Assembly (NCBI GenBank): GCA_009693165.1
Contig: SHXX01000006.1
Coordinates: forward strand, 1 to 52,982
Direction of reading: 5' to 3'
DNA length: 52,982 nucleotides
DNA from: Chloroflexota bacterium
GTDB lineage: Bacteria > Chloroflexota > UBA11872 > UBA12225
The notes beneath the pieces are model-generated. The model was not told the DNA's origin. It did no database searches and saw only the letters and a list, made by a program, of their open reading frames with translations. The position numbers were made by a program, and so were the translations under genes. Within the stretch, counting starts at the first letter, position 1. Every line of letters starts with the position of its first letter. Shown here one piece after another: positions 5,284-43,561 of the stretch.

Positions 5284-6651
5284 TTACTTTCCAGTCGCCT
5301 TGGGCAGGTCAATTTGCAATTGCAATGGACCCATCATGGTGCCGACAGTGGTATCGACGCTCTTCTCGCCCGCCCAAATGGGGGTGACCTCTTTCTGGAA
5401 GACATTCTGGTAGTCGAGCATCTTGAAGTTGTCGGGAACCGCGAGGGGACCAGGACCTCCGTCAGATTCAATGAAGTCCTTGAACACTTTGAACAGGGGT
5501 CGCTTGGCAAATTCCTCCCATGAATCCGGCCGGCTTCCGGGGATGTTTGTCTCGGGCATCATCTCGACGCCCTGTTCCTTGCTGACAAAGTGCTTCATGA
5601 GGTTCCAGGCGATGTCGGGGTTCTTACCCTTGGCGTAGAGGGCCCACATATCGACGTGGCCCTGCGATCCGCGCTTGCCGCCTGGCCCCTTGGGGATCAG
5701 GACGGCTTCAATTTTGAACCGGTCCGCGACTGCAGCCTGATCGGCGCCGCCCCACATGCCGGTAGTCCACATGGCGATGTCGCCGTTCTTGTGATCGACC
5801 TTGTCCGCAGGCATAGGGTGGACCTTGTGCTTGTGCCGCAGGTCGTAAAGCCACTGGAGCGCCTGTTTGGCGGGGCCTCGGTCAATCGCCGGCTTCTTGC
5901 CGAGAGACGGAGGGTCGAGCATCTCGCCGCCGAAAGACCTGATGAAGCAGAGGACGGGCGGGTAGGCCGTCTCAGTGTTGATTCCCCAGATACCCGGTTT
6001 CGCCGCCATCACCTTGCGCGAGATGTCAACGAGGTCATCATAAGACGACGTCAGCGTCGGAGGCTGAACTTGTGTGGTCTCGAAGATGTTGACATTGTAG
6101 AAGAGCCCAATATGGCTTGGATGCATGAGGTTGGGCATGCCGAACAGCTTGTTGTCGACGAGGCGGGCGGTTTCGATCGCACGGGGGAAGTGTTGCTTGA
6201 GGTCGTACTTGTCCTTGGTCGTGTAGGTCTCGACGTTCAGGAAGTGCCCCTGTGCCGCAAGCTCGAAGTAGGATCCGACACCGGTGCTTGCCCACACAAC
6301 ATCCCCAAGATCGCCCGCGGCAAGCATGGCGATGAGTTTCTCGTAGCCCGAATCCTGGGCCAGTTCAACGGTGACATTCGGGTTCAGGTCGCTGAATTTT
6401 TTGGTTCTGACCGGGATGTACTTCTCAGTGCGGTGGTTTACCCGAAGAGTGACCGGCGCAGCTGCCTTGGTCGGCGCGGCCGTTGGTGCCGGAACCGCGG
6501 CTGCGGTCGTTGGTGCGGGTTTCGCCGCCCCGGCGGTTGGTTGAGCCGGTGCGGCCGGTGCTTCCCCGCCGCACGCGGATATCAGCAGGCCGAGTGCGGC
6601 TGCGGACGCGTGAAGTATCGAACGCCTTGACTGGACCGTGACCGGATTCAT
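5284..6651 (-). CDS. Extracellular solute-binding lipoprotein (ABC sugar-type)
   Basis: A 455-residue binding protein of the family 1 (maltose/sn-glycerol-3-phosphate-like) kind, which captures a carbohydrate outside the cell and delivers it to an ABC permease. The ATG at 6651 follows AGGGGGA and gives a Tat-like signal (QSRRSILHASAAALG) with a lipobox ending at Cys27 (LLISAC). A long Ala/Pro/Thr-rich linker follows to about residue 68, then the two-lobed fold (for example FSDLNPNVTVELAQDSGYEKL and YTTKDKYDLKQHFPRA). The frame is open upstream to 6936, but that part looks non-coding. No permease or ATPase gene is adjacent, so it must either pair with components encoded elsewhere or be an orphan. 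The nearby enolase-superfamily gene suggests a sugar or sugar-acid ligand. Confidence 0.85.
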   Translation of the reverse strand: MNPVTVQSRRSILHASAAALGLLISACGGEAPAAPAQPTAGAAKPAPTTAAAVPAPTAAPTKAAAPVTLRVNHRTEKYIPVRTKKFSDLNPNVTVELAQDSGYEKLIAMLAAGDLGDVVWASTGVGSYFELAAQGHFLNVETYTTKDKYDLKQHFPRAIETARLVDNKLFGMPNLMHPSHIGLFYNVNIFETTQVQPPTLTSSYDDLVDISRKVMAAKPGIWGINTETAYPPVLCFIRSFGGEMLDPPSLGKKPAIDRGPAKQALQWLYDLRHKHKVHPMPADKVDHKNGDIAMWTTGMWGGADQAAVADRFKIEAVLIPKGPGGKRGSQGHVDMWALYAKGKNPDIAWNLMKHFVSKEQGVEMMPETNIPGSRPDSWEEFAKRPLFKVFKDFIESDGGPGPLAVPDNFKMLDYQNVFQKEVTPIWAGEKSVDTTVGTMMGPLQLQIDLPKATGK

Positions 6652-7006
6652 GGGTGCTTCCCCCTTCGCATGAGGGGCAGCGTATCCGCAAGTGAACGGC
6701 ATGTCAATCGGGGCTACGTGCAGTATTCGGTCGTGCGTATGACCTTGTGAATTAGGCAACGGTTGCGCGGGAACCGATCCAGTTCGTGATCGGCGGACTG
6801 CTACGTGAGGTTCCCGCGCACCACAAAGGTCACCGGTCTCTGCAAGGATGTCCAGAAACGCCTCGGCTGTTAGATTCGCCCCGAACCTGAACCGGGAGGT
6901 TCGTCCGTGATCACTGACGATTGACCTGCACCACATTCACGCACAGCCTTGGGCAAGCCGACCTCGTTGCGATGTCACAACAACGCCAGCTCCGCACCAC
7001 ATCCAC
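6652..7006. other. Intergenic region with a long inverted repeat
   Basis: A 355-bp gap between two minus-strand genes. Its one clear feature is the inverted repeat at 6764-6820, described separately. I see no convincing protein in the rest. Confidence 0.6.
6764..6820. promoter_or_regulatory. 12-bp inverted repeat with nested hairpin upstream of the binding-protein gene
   Basis: TGCGCGGGAACC (6764-6775) and GGTTCCCGCGCA (6809-6820) are perfect inverted copies 33 nt apart. Between and overlapping them, CCGATC (6774-6779) can pair with GATCGG (6788-6793). The two pairings share bases, so they compete. The element ends 113 nt upstream of the ATG at 6651 and 187 nt past the stop of the upstream gene. 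It could be a leader RNA switch, a terminator without a T run, or a DNA operator. It matches no riboswitch I know. Confidence 0.45.
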
Positions 7007-8122
7007 TCACCCCACCGCGTAGTGGCGCACGGCATCCATGTCAAATTCGCAGCCGAGGCCGGGCACGTCGGGCACGGTTGCGTGTCCATCGGTGAAGGTC
7101 ATCGGTGTCTCCACCAACATGTGTTCACGCACCCAACTGCCAACAAGGTCACTCGGCAGGACGCACGCGTGGGCAGCCGCGCAGGCGTGCAGGTATGAGT
7201 GTTCGGCCACCCCAAGGTCCACACCTGATCCATGCCACACGTGTGATCCATAGGCCGAGGCCATGGACGCCATCCGCACGAAGTCGACCATTCCTCCCCC
7301 GAGATTGAAGTGGTCGCATGCCTCTGACTTGATCGCGTTTACGACATCACGCGGATTGCCAAGGTGCAGTGCCAGTGGAACATCGATCGCTGCCCGGATT
7401 TGCCGGTACCAGTCCAGGTTCCACTTGGGCACTGGATCCTCGTACATCGCGATGGTCGGGAAGCGTGCCAACCGTCGCGCCAGGCCGATTGCCTCGACCG
7501 GGCGATAGAAGCGTTCATTCGGGTCGAGGGTCAGGGTGAACCCCGGTCCGGCGGCATCGAGGATTGCCTGGATGCGTGCCTCCCATGGATCGTCGATCGC
7601 GCACTTCATCTTGAGACCGTGGAACCCGCGTGCCTTGGCCTCGCCAGCGGCCCGGCCCGCATCATCGGGCGTCATCTGCCCAATCCAATAGTCCATGGCC
7701 ACTCGGTCACGGACCTTGCCTCCGAGCAGTGCGTGCACCGGCAAGCCAAGATGGCGTCCGACAAGGTCGAAGAGCGCCATCTCGAACGCATCGTAAGCCG
7801 GGTTGATGCGCCCGGTTCCGTGCCGGCCCTCGTGCGTGCGACCGGTCGGCGTTCCCTCGGCCCGCCCTGGGTCGATCGGCAAATCTTGCAGCGGGATCCG
7901 CAACGGGTTCAATCCGATGAGCGACTGAGCAGCGGATGCCACGGCGGATCGGCCAACGCCACGGCCGGTCTCGCCGATGCCATAGACGCCTTCATCGGTC
8001 TGAAGGCGGATCAGGTGCTTTGGAACGTGGTCCCACGTGGCGGCCCCGAATTCGGGACTGTTCACGGTTCCCGGCCTTGCGCGCACCACAACGGTCCAGA
8101 TCTCACATCCGGTGATCTGCAT
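7007..8122 (-). CDS. Enolase-superfamily enzyme (mandelate racemase / muconate lactonizing type)
   Basis: A 371-residue member of the enolase superfamily, which removes an alpha-proton from a carboxylate substrate using Mg2+, leading to racemisation or dehydration. The ATG at 8122 (MQITGCEIW) follows AAGGGGGA; the open frame upstream of it looks non-coding. The N-terminal capping domain includes GIGETGRGVGRS. The barrel shows GLKMKC with the KxK pair (K161, K163), LDPNE (D190) and MYEDPVP (E218), which correspond to base and metal ligands, and a late LHLGNP and HGSGVDLG. The sugar-acid dehydratase branch is likely but the substrate cannot be named. It lies downstream of the SGNH gene and upstream of the binding protein on the same strand. 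Confidence 0.85.
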   Translation of the reverse strand: MQITGCEIWTVVVRARPGTVNSPEFGAATWDHVPKHLIRLQTDEGVYGIGETGRGVGRSAVASAAQSLIGLNPLRIPLQDLPIDPGRAEGTPTGRTHEGRHGTGRINPAYDAFEMALFDLVGRHLGLPVHALLGGKVRDRVAMDYWIGQMTPDDAGRAAGEAKARGFHGLKMKCAIDDPWEARIQAILDAAGPGFTLTLDPNERFYRPVEAIGLARRLARFPTIAMYEDPVPKWNLDWYRQIRAAIDVPLALHLGNPRDVVNAIKSEACDHFNLGGGMVDFVRMASMASAYGSHVWHGSGVDLGVAEHSYLHACAAAHACVLPSDLVGSWVREHMLVETPMTFTDGHATVPDVPGLGCEFDMDAVRHYAVG

Positions 8123-40506: not shown

Positions 40507-41655
40507 TTGGCCGCGGATGACCCGCCGGTGAGGATTGCGGTCGACTTCACGGCGGGGGTGCGTCAGCCCGCGGGCGTAGGGCGGTACACGCGCGGGCTGG
40601 TTCGTGCGTTGTCCCTCGCTGCCGCTGCCGATGATGAGGACCACTCGCTGACGCTGCTCTGGAGTGGCCCCAAACGTATCCCGCTTCCCAACGACTGGCC
40701 CGGCGTGACGACACGGCGACTGCCTCTGGATGAGCGGTGGATGACCGTTGCATGGCAACGCCTGCACCTGCCGTTTCCTGCGGACCTGTACGCGGGCGGA
40801 GCAGACATCGTCTATTCATCGGATTTTGCACTCGCACCGAGGTGGCGGGCTCCGGGAGTGGTCACGATTCATGACCTGAGTTATGTCCTATTTCCGGATA
40901 CGCACTTCCCGCCACTTCGGAGATACCTGGAGACCACGGTGCCCCGTAGCGTCCGTGCGGCTTCGCTTGTCCTAGCGGATTCCGACCAAACGCGACGCGA
41001 CGTCATCAACCATCTTGGCGCGGACCCGGCGAAAGTCCTTACCGTTCTCTCCGCACCCGATGACGTCTTCAAACCGGCGATGCCGGCATTAATCGAGGCT
41101 GTCCAGGCGAAGTGGAACGTTGCGGGTCACTATGTGATTTCGGTCGGGACCATCCAACCGCGCAAGAACCTCCCGGTGATTTTTGAGGCGTTGCGTCAAC
41201 TTCCGGAGACCGTGAGGATGGTCCATGTTGGCCGACCCGGATGGCTTTGCGATCCCATCTTTGAAGCGCTCGACCGAAGCGGTGTCAAGGACCGGGTCTC
41301 GATCCTGTCCGGCGTCGATGACGACGATCTGGCCGCCTTGTACGGCGGCGCGGTGGCTTGTGTGTTCCCCTCGGTCTACGAGGGGTTCGGTCTTCCGTGT
41401 GTCGAGGCAATGGCCTGTGGTGTGCCAGTGATCGCCTCGCATGGCGGATCACTGGCCGAAGTTGTTCAGGAGGCCGGGATCATCGTCGACCCATTTGACA
41501 GCGGGGCGATCGCAAAGGGGGTCGAGCGCCTCATGGAAGATCCCGAGTTCCGGTCTGCGATGATCGCCCGCGGACACACCCAAGCCTCATTGTTCCGGTG
41601 GGATGACAGTGGACGGAAGGTCCTGGAGGCATTCAAGGACGTTGTTGGTCGGTGA
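40507..41655 (+). CDS. Glycosyltransferase family 1 (GT4-like)
   Basis: A 382-residue GT-B fold glycosyltransferase that adds a sugar from a nucleotide donor. The N-terminal lobe has VDFTAGVRQPAGVGRYTRGLV and VVTIHDLSYVLFP. The C-terminal lobe has SVGTIQPRKNLPVI, MVHVGRPGW and the donor-binding EX7E-like segment PSVYEGFGLPCVEAMACGVPVIAS. The TTG at 40507 follows CAGGG; a GTG at 40528 (VRIAVDF) is the alternative. It follows the flippase-like gene closely and converges with the GMPE-repeat gene. Confidence 0.9.
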   Translation: MAADDPPVRIAVDFTAGVRQPAGVGRYTRGLVRALSLAAAADDEDHSLTLLWSGPKRIPLPNDWPGVTTRRLPLDERWMTVAWQRLHLPFPADLYAGGADIVYSSDFALAPRWRAPGVVTIHDLSYVLFPDTHFPPLRRYLETTVPRSVRAASLVLADSDQTRRDVINHLGADPAKVLTVLSAPDDVFKPAMPALIEAVQAKWNVAGHYVISVGTIQPRKNLPVIFEALRQLPETVRMVHVGRPGWLCDPIFEALDRSGVKDRVSILSGVDDDDLAALYGGAVACVFPSVYEGFGLPCVEAMACGVPVIASHGGSLAEVVQEAGIIVDPFDSGAIAKGVERLMEDPEFRSAMIARGHTQASLFRWDDSGRKVLEAFKDVVGR

Positions 41656-41666
41656 CCAATCGGCCA

Positions 41667-42017
41667 TCACCAAGAAGCGTTTCCAGTCCTGTTCGGTTCA
41701 TTTGGTGCCACCCGTTCCCATTCCTCAAGTGCGCGAAGGTACAAGTTGAACTCGGGCATTCCTCCCGATGCGCGTTGCCAGTCCTGCCAAGCGCGCTGGA
41801 ACTTGGGATCCGGCCGCGCGAGATCTGCCCAAGAGTGCTGGCCGTTGGTTTCGGGACGGTCCTCACGTGCCGACAGGTTCTCGAAGCATGCTCTGGCGCG
41901 CTTGAATACCTCATATTCCGGCATTCCTTCAGAGGCAATCTGCCACGAGGTCCACGCCGAGTACCGGTTGGTCCACTCTTCACGAGCATGCACACCGGAC
42001 ATTCCACTCTTGTCCAT
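41667..42017 (-). CDS. GMPE-repeat small protein A (unrecognised)
   Basis: A 116-residue acidic, Trp-rich, soluble-looking protein with no signal peptide or membrane helix. Two copies of a 26-residue repeat lie exactly 55 residues apart: residues 21-46 and 76-101. Both read A-W-x-x-W-Q-x-A-S-x-G-M-P-E-(Y/F)-x-x-(F/Y)-x-R-A-x-x-x-(F/W)-E. The same motif appears twice in the divergent neighbour at 42092-42331. The pattern suggests two amphipathic helices joined by a Gly-Met-Pro-Glu turn. ATG 42017 follows AGGG; an ATG at 42002 is possible. No family recognised, and nothing here gives a function. Confidence 0.7.
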   Translation of the reverse strand: MDKSGMSGVHAREEWTNRYSAWTSWQIASEGMPEYEVFKRARACFENLSAREDRPETNGQHSWADLARPDPKFQRAWQDWQRASGGMPEFNLYLRALEEWERVAPNEPNRTGNASW

Positions 42018-42091
42018 TGATTGAACCCTAACGGGCGGCGCCGTGGATGGCAATCAAGTGCATCGATCGCGAGCAACACGTAAGGTCAGGC
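42018..42091. promoter_or_regulatory. Shared divergent promoter region of the GMPE-repeat pair
   Basis: These 74 bp must contain the start signals of both small genes. They include the two ribosome binding sites (AGGG on the minus strand and AAGGTCAGG on the plus strand), leaving room for back-to-back or overlapping promoters. No boxes could be assigned with confidence. Confidence 0.35.
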
Positions 42092-42331
42092 ATGACAAAA
42101 GTACAACGCCTCCGCGCTGAACGTGACCGAACTGAAGCTGCGTGGGAACATGCTAGCGCCGGGATGCCTGAGTTCAAGGCAGCAGAACACGCTTGGGAGC
42201 AGACGCGCATTACCCGGGCTGAGTATGACCGCCTGTTTGCGATCTGGAAGGCAGCTTCAGCGCATATGCCAGAAGAGGCCGCTTACGCCGACGCCGACGC
42301 CGCTTGGAAGCGTGCCCGCGACACCCAGTAG
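42092..42331 (+). CDS. GMPE-repeat small protein B (unrecognised)
   Basis: A 79-residue, highly charged, Ala-rich helical protein. The ATG at 42092 follows TAAGGTCAGG. Residues 18-36 (AWEHASAGMPEFK and on) and 52-73 (IWKAASAHMPEEA and on) repeat the motif of protein A: Trp, two residues, Ala-Ser, then (G/H)-Met-Pro-Glu, then a second helix ending in Trp and a charged residue. Copy 1 is shorter by three residues (about one helical turn). The two genes are divergent across 74 bp and probably share control. A terminator follows at 42349-42390. No family recognised. Confidence 0.7.
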   Translation: MTKVQRLRAERDRTEAAWEHASAGMPEFKAAEHAWEQTRITRAEYDRLFAIWKAASAHMPEEAAYADADAAWKRARDTQ

Positions 42332-42348
42332 TCGAGGCTGACCCATGG

Positions 42349-42390
42349 CGCCCACGACGTGTCCCAAACGGGCACACATCGTGGGCGTTT
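42349..42390 (+). terminator. Long hairpin terminator between protein B and the dehydratase gene
   Basis: CGCCCACGA (42349-42357) pairs with TCGTGGGCG (42379-42387). Inside, GTGT (42359-42362) pairs with ACAC (42374-42377), and CCC with GGG around AAAC. TTT follows on the plus strand. It lies between convergent genes and may stop transcription from both sides. Confidence 0.75.
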
Positions 42391-42394
42391 CGTG

Positions 42395-43561
42395 TCAACC
42401 CACCGCGGATCCGGCTCCTGGCACGGAGTATTGTCGCACGACAGACTCGTCAAGCTCGACGCCGATGCCAGGCCTTTCAAGTACGTGGGCCATCCCGTGT
42501 TCATCAACCTCGATGCCAAGACCGCCGAACAGATGAAGGTTCATCGGGGTTTCCGGCAGCGCGTACTCGAGATAGCGGGCGTTGGGAATTGAAGCGATCA
42601 AGTGCATCGACGCGGCCTTGATGAGCCCGGTGCTCCATGCGTGCGGGATGCAAGGCAGGCCACGGTCGGCGGCCAGGTAGGCCACTCGACGCGCCTCCGT
42701 GAGGCCACCGCATCGGGTCACATCGGGCTGCACGATGCTCACCTTGCCTCGGTCCATCAGGTCGAGGAACTCGTACCGTCCCATGCAGTTCTCGCCCGCA
42801 GCCGTGCGGATGGTCGTGCCGGCCGCCACCCGTGCGAACCCGACAAGGTCGTCGGGCGGGAGAAACTCCTCCAGCCAGTAGGGGTGGAACGGTTCAATCG
42901 CGCGTGCGAAGTCGAGAACACGAGAAGCATCCCAGCCCAGATCAAGATCCGGACCCGGGTAGAACCCGAGGTCGATCATGAGTTCCATTGCATCGCCGGC
43001 CGCCTCGCGACCAGCCTCGACCAAGGAGGCATCGTGGGCGACATCGAACCCCATTGGCCCCCAACCAAGCTTGACTGCCTTGAAACCCTTGGCGCGCCAA
43101 CGGGCAACTTCGGCAAACGCAGCATCCGGGGTCTCTGGCATCAGCACACTCGCGTAGGCCGGTACCGACTTCTGGAGCGCCCCGCCAAAGAGCTTGTAGA
43201 GCGGCAAGCCAAGTGCTTTGCCTTTGATGTCCCAGAGGGCGAGGTCAATCCCACTCATGGCCTGGATGGCGGCACCTCGCCTGCCGAACCACACTGACGC
43301 GCGATACATCTTCTCCCAGAGACGCTCGATGTCGAACGGATCCTCCCCGATGATCGTCTGAGCAAGCCCAGTGCAAACGCGATGGGACTTCGGCGCATCG
43401 ATGATTGCGCGGATGACCTCGGGGGAGGAATCCACCTCTCCGACGCCGGTAATGCCGGCGTCGGTATGGACACGGATGACGATTGCGTCCTGAGCGCTGT
43501 CGTTGATTGCGAGGACGTCCGGCACGCGCAGGACGATCGTTTCGACTGCCGTGATCTTCAC
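42395..43561 (-). CDS. Enolase-superfamily sugar-acid dehydratase-like enzyme
   Basis: A 388-residue enolase-superfamily protein, only distantly similar to the one at 7007. The GTG at 43561 has AAGGAGA 6 nt upstream. The capping domain contains SVWFGRRGAAIQAMSGIDLALWDIKGKALG. In the barrel, GFKAVKLGWGPMG supplies the Lys base (K164), and MIDLGF (D197), WLEEFLP (E231) and AAGENCMG (E257) the metal ligands. His307 in IPHAWSTG suits the second base of mandelate-racemase-type members. Dehydration of a sugar acid is likely. It lies 96 bp downstream of the Gfo/Idh gene on the same strand, so the two probably act in one catabolic route. Confidence 0.87.
   Translation of the reverse strand: MKITAVETIVLRVPDVLAINDSAQDAIVIRVHTDAGITGVGEVDSSPEVIRAIIDAPKSHRVCTGLAQTIIGEDPFDIERLWEKMYRASVWFGRRGAAIQAMSGIDLALWDIKGKALGLPLYKLFGGALQKSVPAYASVLMPETPDAAFAEVARWRAKGFKAVKLGWGPMGFDVAHDASLVEAGREAAGDAMELMIDLGFYPGPDLDLGWDASRVLDFARAIEPFHPYWLEEFLPPDDLVGFARVAAGTTIRTAAGENCMGRYEFLDLMDRGKVSIVQPDVTRCGGLTEARRVAYLAADRGLPCIPHAWSTGLIKAASMHLIASIPNARYLEYALPETPMNLHLFGGLGIEVDEHGMAHVLERPGIGVELDESVVRQYSVPGAGSAVG

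What the first reader, a model, noticed from the sequence alone, without database searches (positions are those of the whole stretch)
41667..42331. Divergent pair of small proteins sharing an unrecognised W-AS-GMPE repeat
Two short genes facing away from each other encode four copies of one motif. Protein A (41667-42017, minus) has two copies 55 residues apart, each A-W-x2-W-Q-x-A-S-x-G-M-P-E-aromatic, then R-A-x3-aromatic-E. Protein B (42092-42331, plus) has two more: W-x2-A-S-A-G-M-P-E-F and W-x2-A-S-A-H-M-P-E. Outside the motif the proteins differ in length and composition, so this is a shared repeat unit, not a simple recent duplication. It looks like a helix-turn-helix hairpin with conserved Trp packing. 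Back-to-back arrangement with a 74-bp shared promoter region is typical of partner systems (regulator/target, toxin/antitoxin, two-part scaffold). I know of no named family with this repeat.
Basis: partly seen in the sequence, partly recalled or inferred. Interest (0 to 1): 0.75.

Follow-up and report, generated by a model that had tools for sequence, protein, structure and literature searches.

The report
Genus-restricted helical-hairpin small-protein family
Two small back-to-back genes in a freshwater Chloroflexota bacterium really do encode related, evolutionarily conserved helical proteins built round one unnamed tryptophan-rich turn motif, but the family is found only in this genus and one neighbouring genome, and nothing shows the two are working partners.

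Summary
A (116 aa, 41667-42017 -) and B (79 aa, 42092-42331 +) each carry two copies of W-x2-A-S-x-x-M-P-E. Profiles built from one protein alone find the other far above shuffles. The divergent pair is syntenic in all four genomes of the genus (class UBA2235, freshwater Chloroflexota), tail-to-tail between a glycosyltransferase and an MR/MLE enolase-superfamily gene. B is under strong purifying selection (dN/dS 0.03-0.06). A's core is constrained too, but A evolves faster and lost 35 residues in two genomes.

I found two further carriers: C (145 aa; three congeners) and D (631 aa; sister genus; five copies, then pentapeptide repeats). There is no significant match in Pfam, NCBIfam, PHROGs, PADLOC or PDB. 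An exact-motif scan of 84,980 species' genomes found only this lineage plus chance hits.

The conserved element is better described as a helix-turn-helix corner with variable spacing (20-62 aa) than as a fixed repeat; B is modelled as two helical hairpins (pLDDT 87). Best reading: a lineage-restricted, vertically inherited family of small cytosolic hairpin proteins, probably oligomerisation or adaptor modules. The partner-system idea is untested and weakened by A's erosion. New family of an ordinary kind; role unresolved.

The parts
41667..42017 (-). Protein A, 116 aa, two W-AS-xGMPE corners, acidic (pI 5.4), 8 Trp, no database family
   Evidence: orthologues in G001, G002, G003; codon-position bias p=7e-4; an AGGG-type ribosome-binding site just upstream of the start, kept in the congeners
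41874..41972 (-). A, motif copy 1 (NRYSAWTSWQIASEGMPEYEVFKRARACFENLS)
   Evidence: Profile match E=1.6e-16
41709..41804 (-). A, motif copy 2 (KFQRAWQDWQRASGGMPEFNLYLRALEEWERV)
   Evidence: Profile match E=1.1e-17
42092..42331 (+). Protein B, 79 aa, two corners, modelled as two helical hairpins (helices 3-22, 26-36, 42-56, 60-78)
   Evidence: dN/dS 0.03-0.06 between the more distant congeners
42116..42217 (+). B, motif copy 1 (AERDRTEAAWEHASAGMPEFKAAEHAWEQTRITR)
   Evidence: Profile match E=6.1e-13
42218..42319 (+). B, motif copy 2 (AEYDRLFAIWKAASAHMPEEAAYADADAAWKRAR)
   Evidence: Profile match E=3.5e-12
42018..42091 (.). Shared 74-bp intergenic region between the two start codons; no sigma-70-like site found
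   Evidence: Aligned in four genomes; the B side (AACACGTA-GGTCAGGC-ATG) is the most conserved part; promoter scan empty
42347..42389 (.). Conserved GC-rich hairpin between the 3' ends of B and the enolase-superfamily gene, probably a terminator for both strands
   Evidence: Fold z-scores -5.1, -4.4, -3.2, -2.2 in the four genomes

Best explanation
A and B are two paralogous members of a small, lineage-restricted family of soluble alpha-helical-hairpin proteins. The conserved W-x2-A-S-x-G/H-M-P-E-F/Y element is the corner of a hairpin: one helix ends at A-S, a short turn follows, and Pro-Glu starts the next helix, with Trp and Ala from both helices probably packing against each other. Corners are joined by helices of different length, so units are a variable-length module and not a fixed repeat. 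The family grew by duplication and inversion (A/B), dispersal (C) and fusion to a pentapeptide-repeat solenoid (D). Most likely job: a protein-protein contact module (homo- or hetero-oligomerising scaffold or adaptor) in the cytosol. B is the conserved core product and A a faster-evolving relative. SHOWN: shared motif, translation, selection, synteny, family members. MODELLED: hairpins of B. INFERRED: core packing, the oligomer or adaptor role, any A-B contact.
For: Cross-detection of A, B, C and D by single-protein profiles, above all of 2000 shuffles each. Pair syntenic in G000-G003. B dN/dS 0.03-0.06; A 0.18-0.37, with A's core nearly as constrained as B's (corner 1 dN 0.076, linker dN 0.038, against dS 0.75-0.84) and only the ends relaxed. 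B model: four helices with turns exactly at the two motifs, pLDDT 86.8, pTM 0.62. C found in three congeners by the unit profile at 4.5e-8. D: five copies followed by pentapeptide repeats. No gross hydrophobicity (GRAVY about -1), pI 5.1-6.3, few aliphatic residues.
Against: No structure, interaction or expression data. The model of A is poor (pLDDT 54) and the alignments hold only four rows. Helical hairpins also serve many unrelated roles. The neighbours suggest no function common to all three kinds of locus.
Confidence: 0.5

Rival explanations
1. A and B are obligate partners (two-part scaffold): they form a hetero-oligomer through like corners, and the shared intergenic region keeps them co-expressed.
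For: The divergent arrangement is retained in all four genomes of the genus; both proteins are translated and constrained; both use the same corner, which could pack against itself.
Against: Constraint is unequal, and 35 residues of A are gone in two genomes with B unchanged. C and D occur without a divergent motif-bearing partner. With only four close genomes, conserved adjacency is weak evidence. No recognisable promoter.
Confidence: 0.22
2. A is a decaying inverted duplicate of B (or of B's ancestor); only B has a function, and the divergent layout is a relic of the duplication.
For: A evolves faster, its ends are unconstrained (N-term dN 0.41, C-term dN 0.52), start codons vary, an internal deletion is fixed in G001/G003, and those two differ at positions 3/2/1 with dN/dS 1.5 on only six differences.
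Against: In G000 against G002 the core of A is clearly under selection, including the linker between the two copies (dN 0.038, dS 0.84). The deletion is in frame and keeps both corners. A's two copies resemble each other (39%) more than B's (24-33%), so the duplication is old.
Confidence: 0.2
3. A toxin-antitoxin or other conflict module.
For: Small genes, divergent, lineage-restricted, sitting in a gene junction that is empty in the sister genus.
Against: No PADLOC match for A, B or D, and only a weak 14-bit one for C. No match in phage or plasmid records. Same site in all four genomes and no mobility genes next to it. The two partners share one fold, which is unusual for toxin-antitoxin pairs (general knowledge). 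B is slowly evolving, unlike typical conflict genes.
Confidence: 0.04
4. An accessory factor of the adjacent sugar-acid catabolism genes (MR/MLE enolase superfamily).
For: A/B sit beside an MR/MLE gene; C lies between two MR/MLE genes in the same orientation, 118 bp downstream of the first to its ATG.
Against: D has no MR/MLE gene on its 11-kb contig by inspection. MR/MLE genes are common in these genomes: at least 5-7 close paralogues per congener. The class is the richest of Chloroflexota in carbohydrate genes (PMC10608941), so adjacency by chance is not unlikely. B and its MR/MLE neighbour are convergent, not in an operon, with a hairpin between them. In sister genus G008 the orthologous MR/MLE gene (86% identical) does without A/B.
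Confidence: 0.1

Closest known systems
Pentapeptide-repeat proteins (Pfam PF00805)
   Same: Family member D (G008) carries a C-terminal pentapeptide-repeat region (E=1.9e-56) directly after its five motif copies
   Different: A, B and C have no pentapeptide repeats; the motif region of D (363 aa) has no Pfam match
Short antiparallel helical-hairpin / four-helix proteins (ROP-like, Alacoil-like packing; Kif21A monomeric coiled coil 5nfd)
   Same: Antiparallel helices joined by short turns, Ala-rich interface; ROP variant 9cfs and 5nfd align to the B model at TM about 0.5
   Different: Those matches are not significant (E 4-5; best of all 0.57) and there is no sequence similarity; the W-AS-x-x-MPE corner is absent from the PDB
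34-residue helix-turn-helix repeats (TPR/SEL1 class)
   Same: Two-helix unit; B's spacing of 34 residues happens to equal the TPR length
   Different: No TPR or SEL1 Pfam match even at E=10; spacing varies 20-62 in the family, unlike a fixed-length solenoid repeat

Membership tests
Any curated protein family | Score above the curated cut-off of a Pfam or NCBIfam model | tested here: not met
   A and B: nothing near a cut-off in Pfam, nothing in NCBIfam, nothing significant in PHROGs; C and the motif region of D: no Pfam match
TPR/SEL1-type repeat | Pfam TPR or SEL1 match; constant 34-40 residue period | tested here: not met
   No match; turn spacings 20, 27, 30, 31, 34, 51, 55, 62
Pentapeptide-repeat protein | Tandem A(D/N)LXX repeats | tested here: not met
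   Not in A, B or C; met only by D
Toxin-antitoxin / defence system | Match to a known toxin, antitoxin or defence model | tested here: not met
   PADLOC: none for A, B, D; weak 14-bit match for C only; Pfam and NCBIfam none
Toxin-antitoxin / defence system | One gene toxic, the other neutralising | not testable with these tools
   Needs expression
ROP/Alacoil-like helical hairpin (works-like claim) | Two antiparallel helices per unit with a short turn | tested here: inconclusive
   B model shows helices and turns in the right places (pLDDT 87), but no significant fold match and A is poorly modelled
Hetero-oligomeric A-B partner system | Physical contact of A and B | not testable with these tools
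   Only single-chain prediction was available
Hetero-oligomeric A-B partner system | Carriers occur as divergent pairs | tested here: inconclusive
   Four of four A/B loci are divergent pairs but they are one orthologous locus; C (three genomes) and D (one) are singletons

The most novel reading that the evidence does not exclude
A new self-complementary helical corner module, W-x2-A-S-x-x-M-P-E, that arose in one freshwater Chloroflexota lineage and is spreading there as small two-corner proteins, larger single proteins and fusions to a pentapeptide solenoid, with A and B forming a hetero-oligomeric scaffold through like-like corners.
Probability: 0.2. Interest if true: 0.5.

Novelty: new variant of a known kind. 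Interest (0 to 1): 0.35.

Why it matters
If right, it defines a previously unnamed protein family from an uncultivated lake lineage, with a clear sequence signature, four family members and evidence of selection, so that a young protein module can be followed through duplication, deletion and fusion. Its practical weight is limited by its narrow distribution and unknown role.

Tried and rejected
Chance or non-coding ORF: rejected by codon-position bias, dN/dS and retained starts. Widespread family: one exact-pattern scan of 84,980 species' genomes for W..AS.GMPE[FY] gave 22 stretches; only four (congeners G001-G003 and G008) hold further family copies, the rest are isolated motifs without other units in the profile scan, many not in credible genes. 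The strict pattern would miss diverged relatives. Profile searches of 400 Chloroflexota genomes, 397 genomes of the phylum of G400 (a record titled Actinobacteria) and 399 of the phylum of G401 (a record titled Methylobacter) gave only isolated 15-residue hits outside the lineage; those last two had no positive control, so absence there is weak evidence. Viral origin: an exact-pattern scan and three protein scans of viral contigs, and tblastn of phage and plasmid records, found no relative. Solved-structure and fold searches gave nothing significant. Insertion marks: no repeats of 13 bases or more, and no inverted repeats of 11 or more, in 41601-42460, so no sign of a mobile element. Literature searches for such a motif were fruitless.

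Full report
What is there. ORF A runs 42017 to 41667 on the minus strand (116 aa from ATG) and ORF B 42092 to 42331 on the plus strand (79 aa), with 74 bp between the start codons. A carries QIASEGMPEY and QRASGGMPEF 55 residues apart, B carries EHASAGMPEF and KAASAHMPEE 34 apart.

More than chance. A profile built from A-family units alone scores B at 26.0 bits against a best of 11.5 among 2000 shuffles of B; a profile of B units alone scores A at 30.5 against 11.8. The same two profiles recover the later-found proteins C (36.7 and 12.3 bits against 9.1 and 8.0) and D (35.4 and 24.9 against 7.0 and 8.4).

Lineage. The window is contig 14 of a 2.2-Mb, 82%-complete assembly. Three congeners hold the same locus. 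The class is therefore very probably UBA2235 of the Chloroflexota, in which PMC10608941 counts 50 genomes with the highest share of carbohydrate genes in the phylum.

Conserved locus. In all four genomes the order is glycosyltransferase > < A, B > < MR/MLE enolase-superfamily gene. In sister genus G008 the same two flanking genes (71% and 86% identical) are adjacent with about 230 bp between them and no A or B. Genomes G005, G006, G007 and G009 have the glycosyltransferase with other genes beside it. So the pair was gained in the genus or lost in G008; no terminal repeats suggest a mobile element. A hairpin at 42347-42389 between B and the enolase gene is conserved in all four genomes (z -5.1 to -2.2) and is probably a terminator for both.

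Selection. Between the more distant congeners (dS 0.6-0.8) B has dN 0.025-0.042, dN/dS 0.03-0.06, below the glycosyltransferase next to it (0.09-0.14) and above the enolase-superfamily gene (dN 0.009-0.015, dS 0.64-0.83). A has dN/dS 0.18-0.37 overall. Split by segment, its core is well kept (corner 1 dN 0.076, linker 0.038, corner 2 0.114, dS 0.75-0.84) and its ends are not (dN 0.41 and 0.52). In G001 and G003 A has lost 35 residues in frame, bringing its two corners to 20 residues apart. These are real, translated genes; A is the looser of the two.

Other carriers. The unit profile found a third gene, C, in G001, G002 and G003 (145 aa, two copies, one with EGEPE in place of xGMPE), between two MR/MLE genes in what looks like a sugar-catabolism cluster. 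G000 lacks the enolase gene that follows C, so C's absence there may be incompleteness. In G008 a 631-aa protein, D, holds five copies and then a long pentapeptide-repeat region. A search of 400 genomes of the phylum with D's first 363 residues found D alone.

Distribution. Exact-pattern scans of 84,980 species' genomes and of 2.9 million viral contigs and profile searches of about 1,200 genomes in three phyla gave no multi-copy carrier outside this lineage. My own rough estimate for the pattern in the genome collection is about fifteen chance matches, which fits the isolated hits seen. The two searches outside the phylum had no positive control.

Structure. AlphaFold2 with four orthologues models B as helices 3-22, 26-36, 42-56 and 60-78 (pLDDT 86.8, pTM 0.62), with both motif copies exactly at the helix-helix corners. 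A is modelled with low confidence (54) but has a similar helix pattern. No significant fold match in the PDB or the viral library. The proteins are hydrophilic, Trp- and Ala-rich and poor in Val, Ile and Leu (5 of 79 in B), which suggests an aromatic-alanine core.

Reading. The motif is a helix-turn-helix corner used with connecting helices of varied length, not a repeat of fixed period. The family is small, lineage-restricted and vertically inherited in the genus. The most likely role is protein-protein contact (scaffold or adaptor, homo- or hetero-oligomer). Toxin-antitoxin is unlikely. A link with the sugar-acid enzymes next to A/B and C is a lead only, since such genes are common in these genomes.

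Verdict. Observation confirmed, interpretation partly supported. A new, unnamed family of an ordinary kind (small helical proteins of unknown role restricted to one lineage).

Noticed in passing
L069:2102-2539, L070 (ORF 6556-7074), L071 (ORF 5920-6447): Third family member C between two MR/MLE enolase-superfamily genes; its first half has W-rich helical stretches that look like corners without the MPE.
   Followed up: partly
L038:6182-8074: D: 631-aa protein with five motif copies followed by a long pentapeptide-repeat region, found in one genome only (G008).
   Followed up: partly
L089:1050-1292 and L093:2310-2633: In-frame loss of 35 residues of A in two congeners, removing the linker that is the best conserved part of A in the other two.
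   Followed up: yes
window:42347-42389: Strong conserved hairpin between two convergent genes, probably a bidirectional terminator; the consensus terminator scan missed it.
   Followed up: partly
window:34301-39108: Two successive genes with O-antigen ligase (Wzy_C) domains, one of 1069 aa, then a lysylphosphatidylglycerol-synthase-type membrane protein and a glycosyltransferase: an exopolysaccharide locus.
   Followed up: no
L093 (record CAMDTO010000041.1): The public title calls this bin Thermoflexus hugenholtzii JAD2, but it is a congener of the window's UBA2235-type genome; the name looks wrong.
   Followed up: partly
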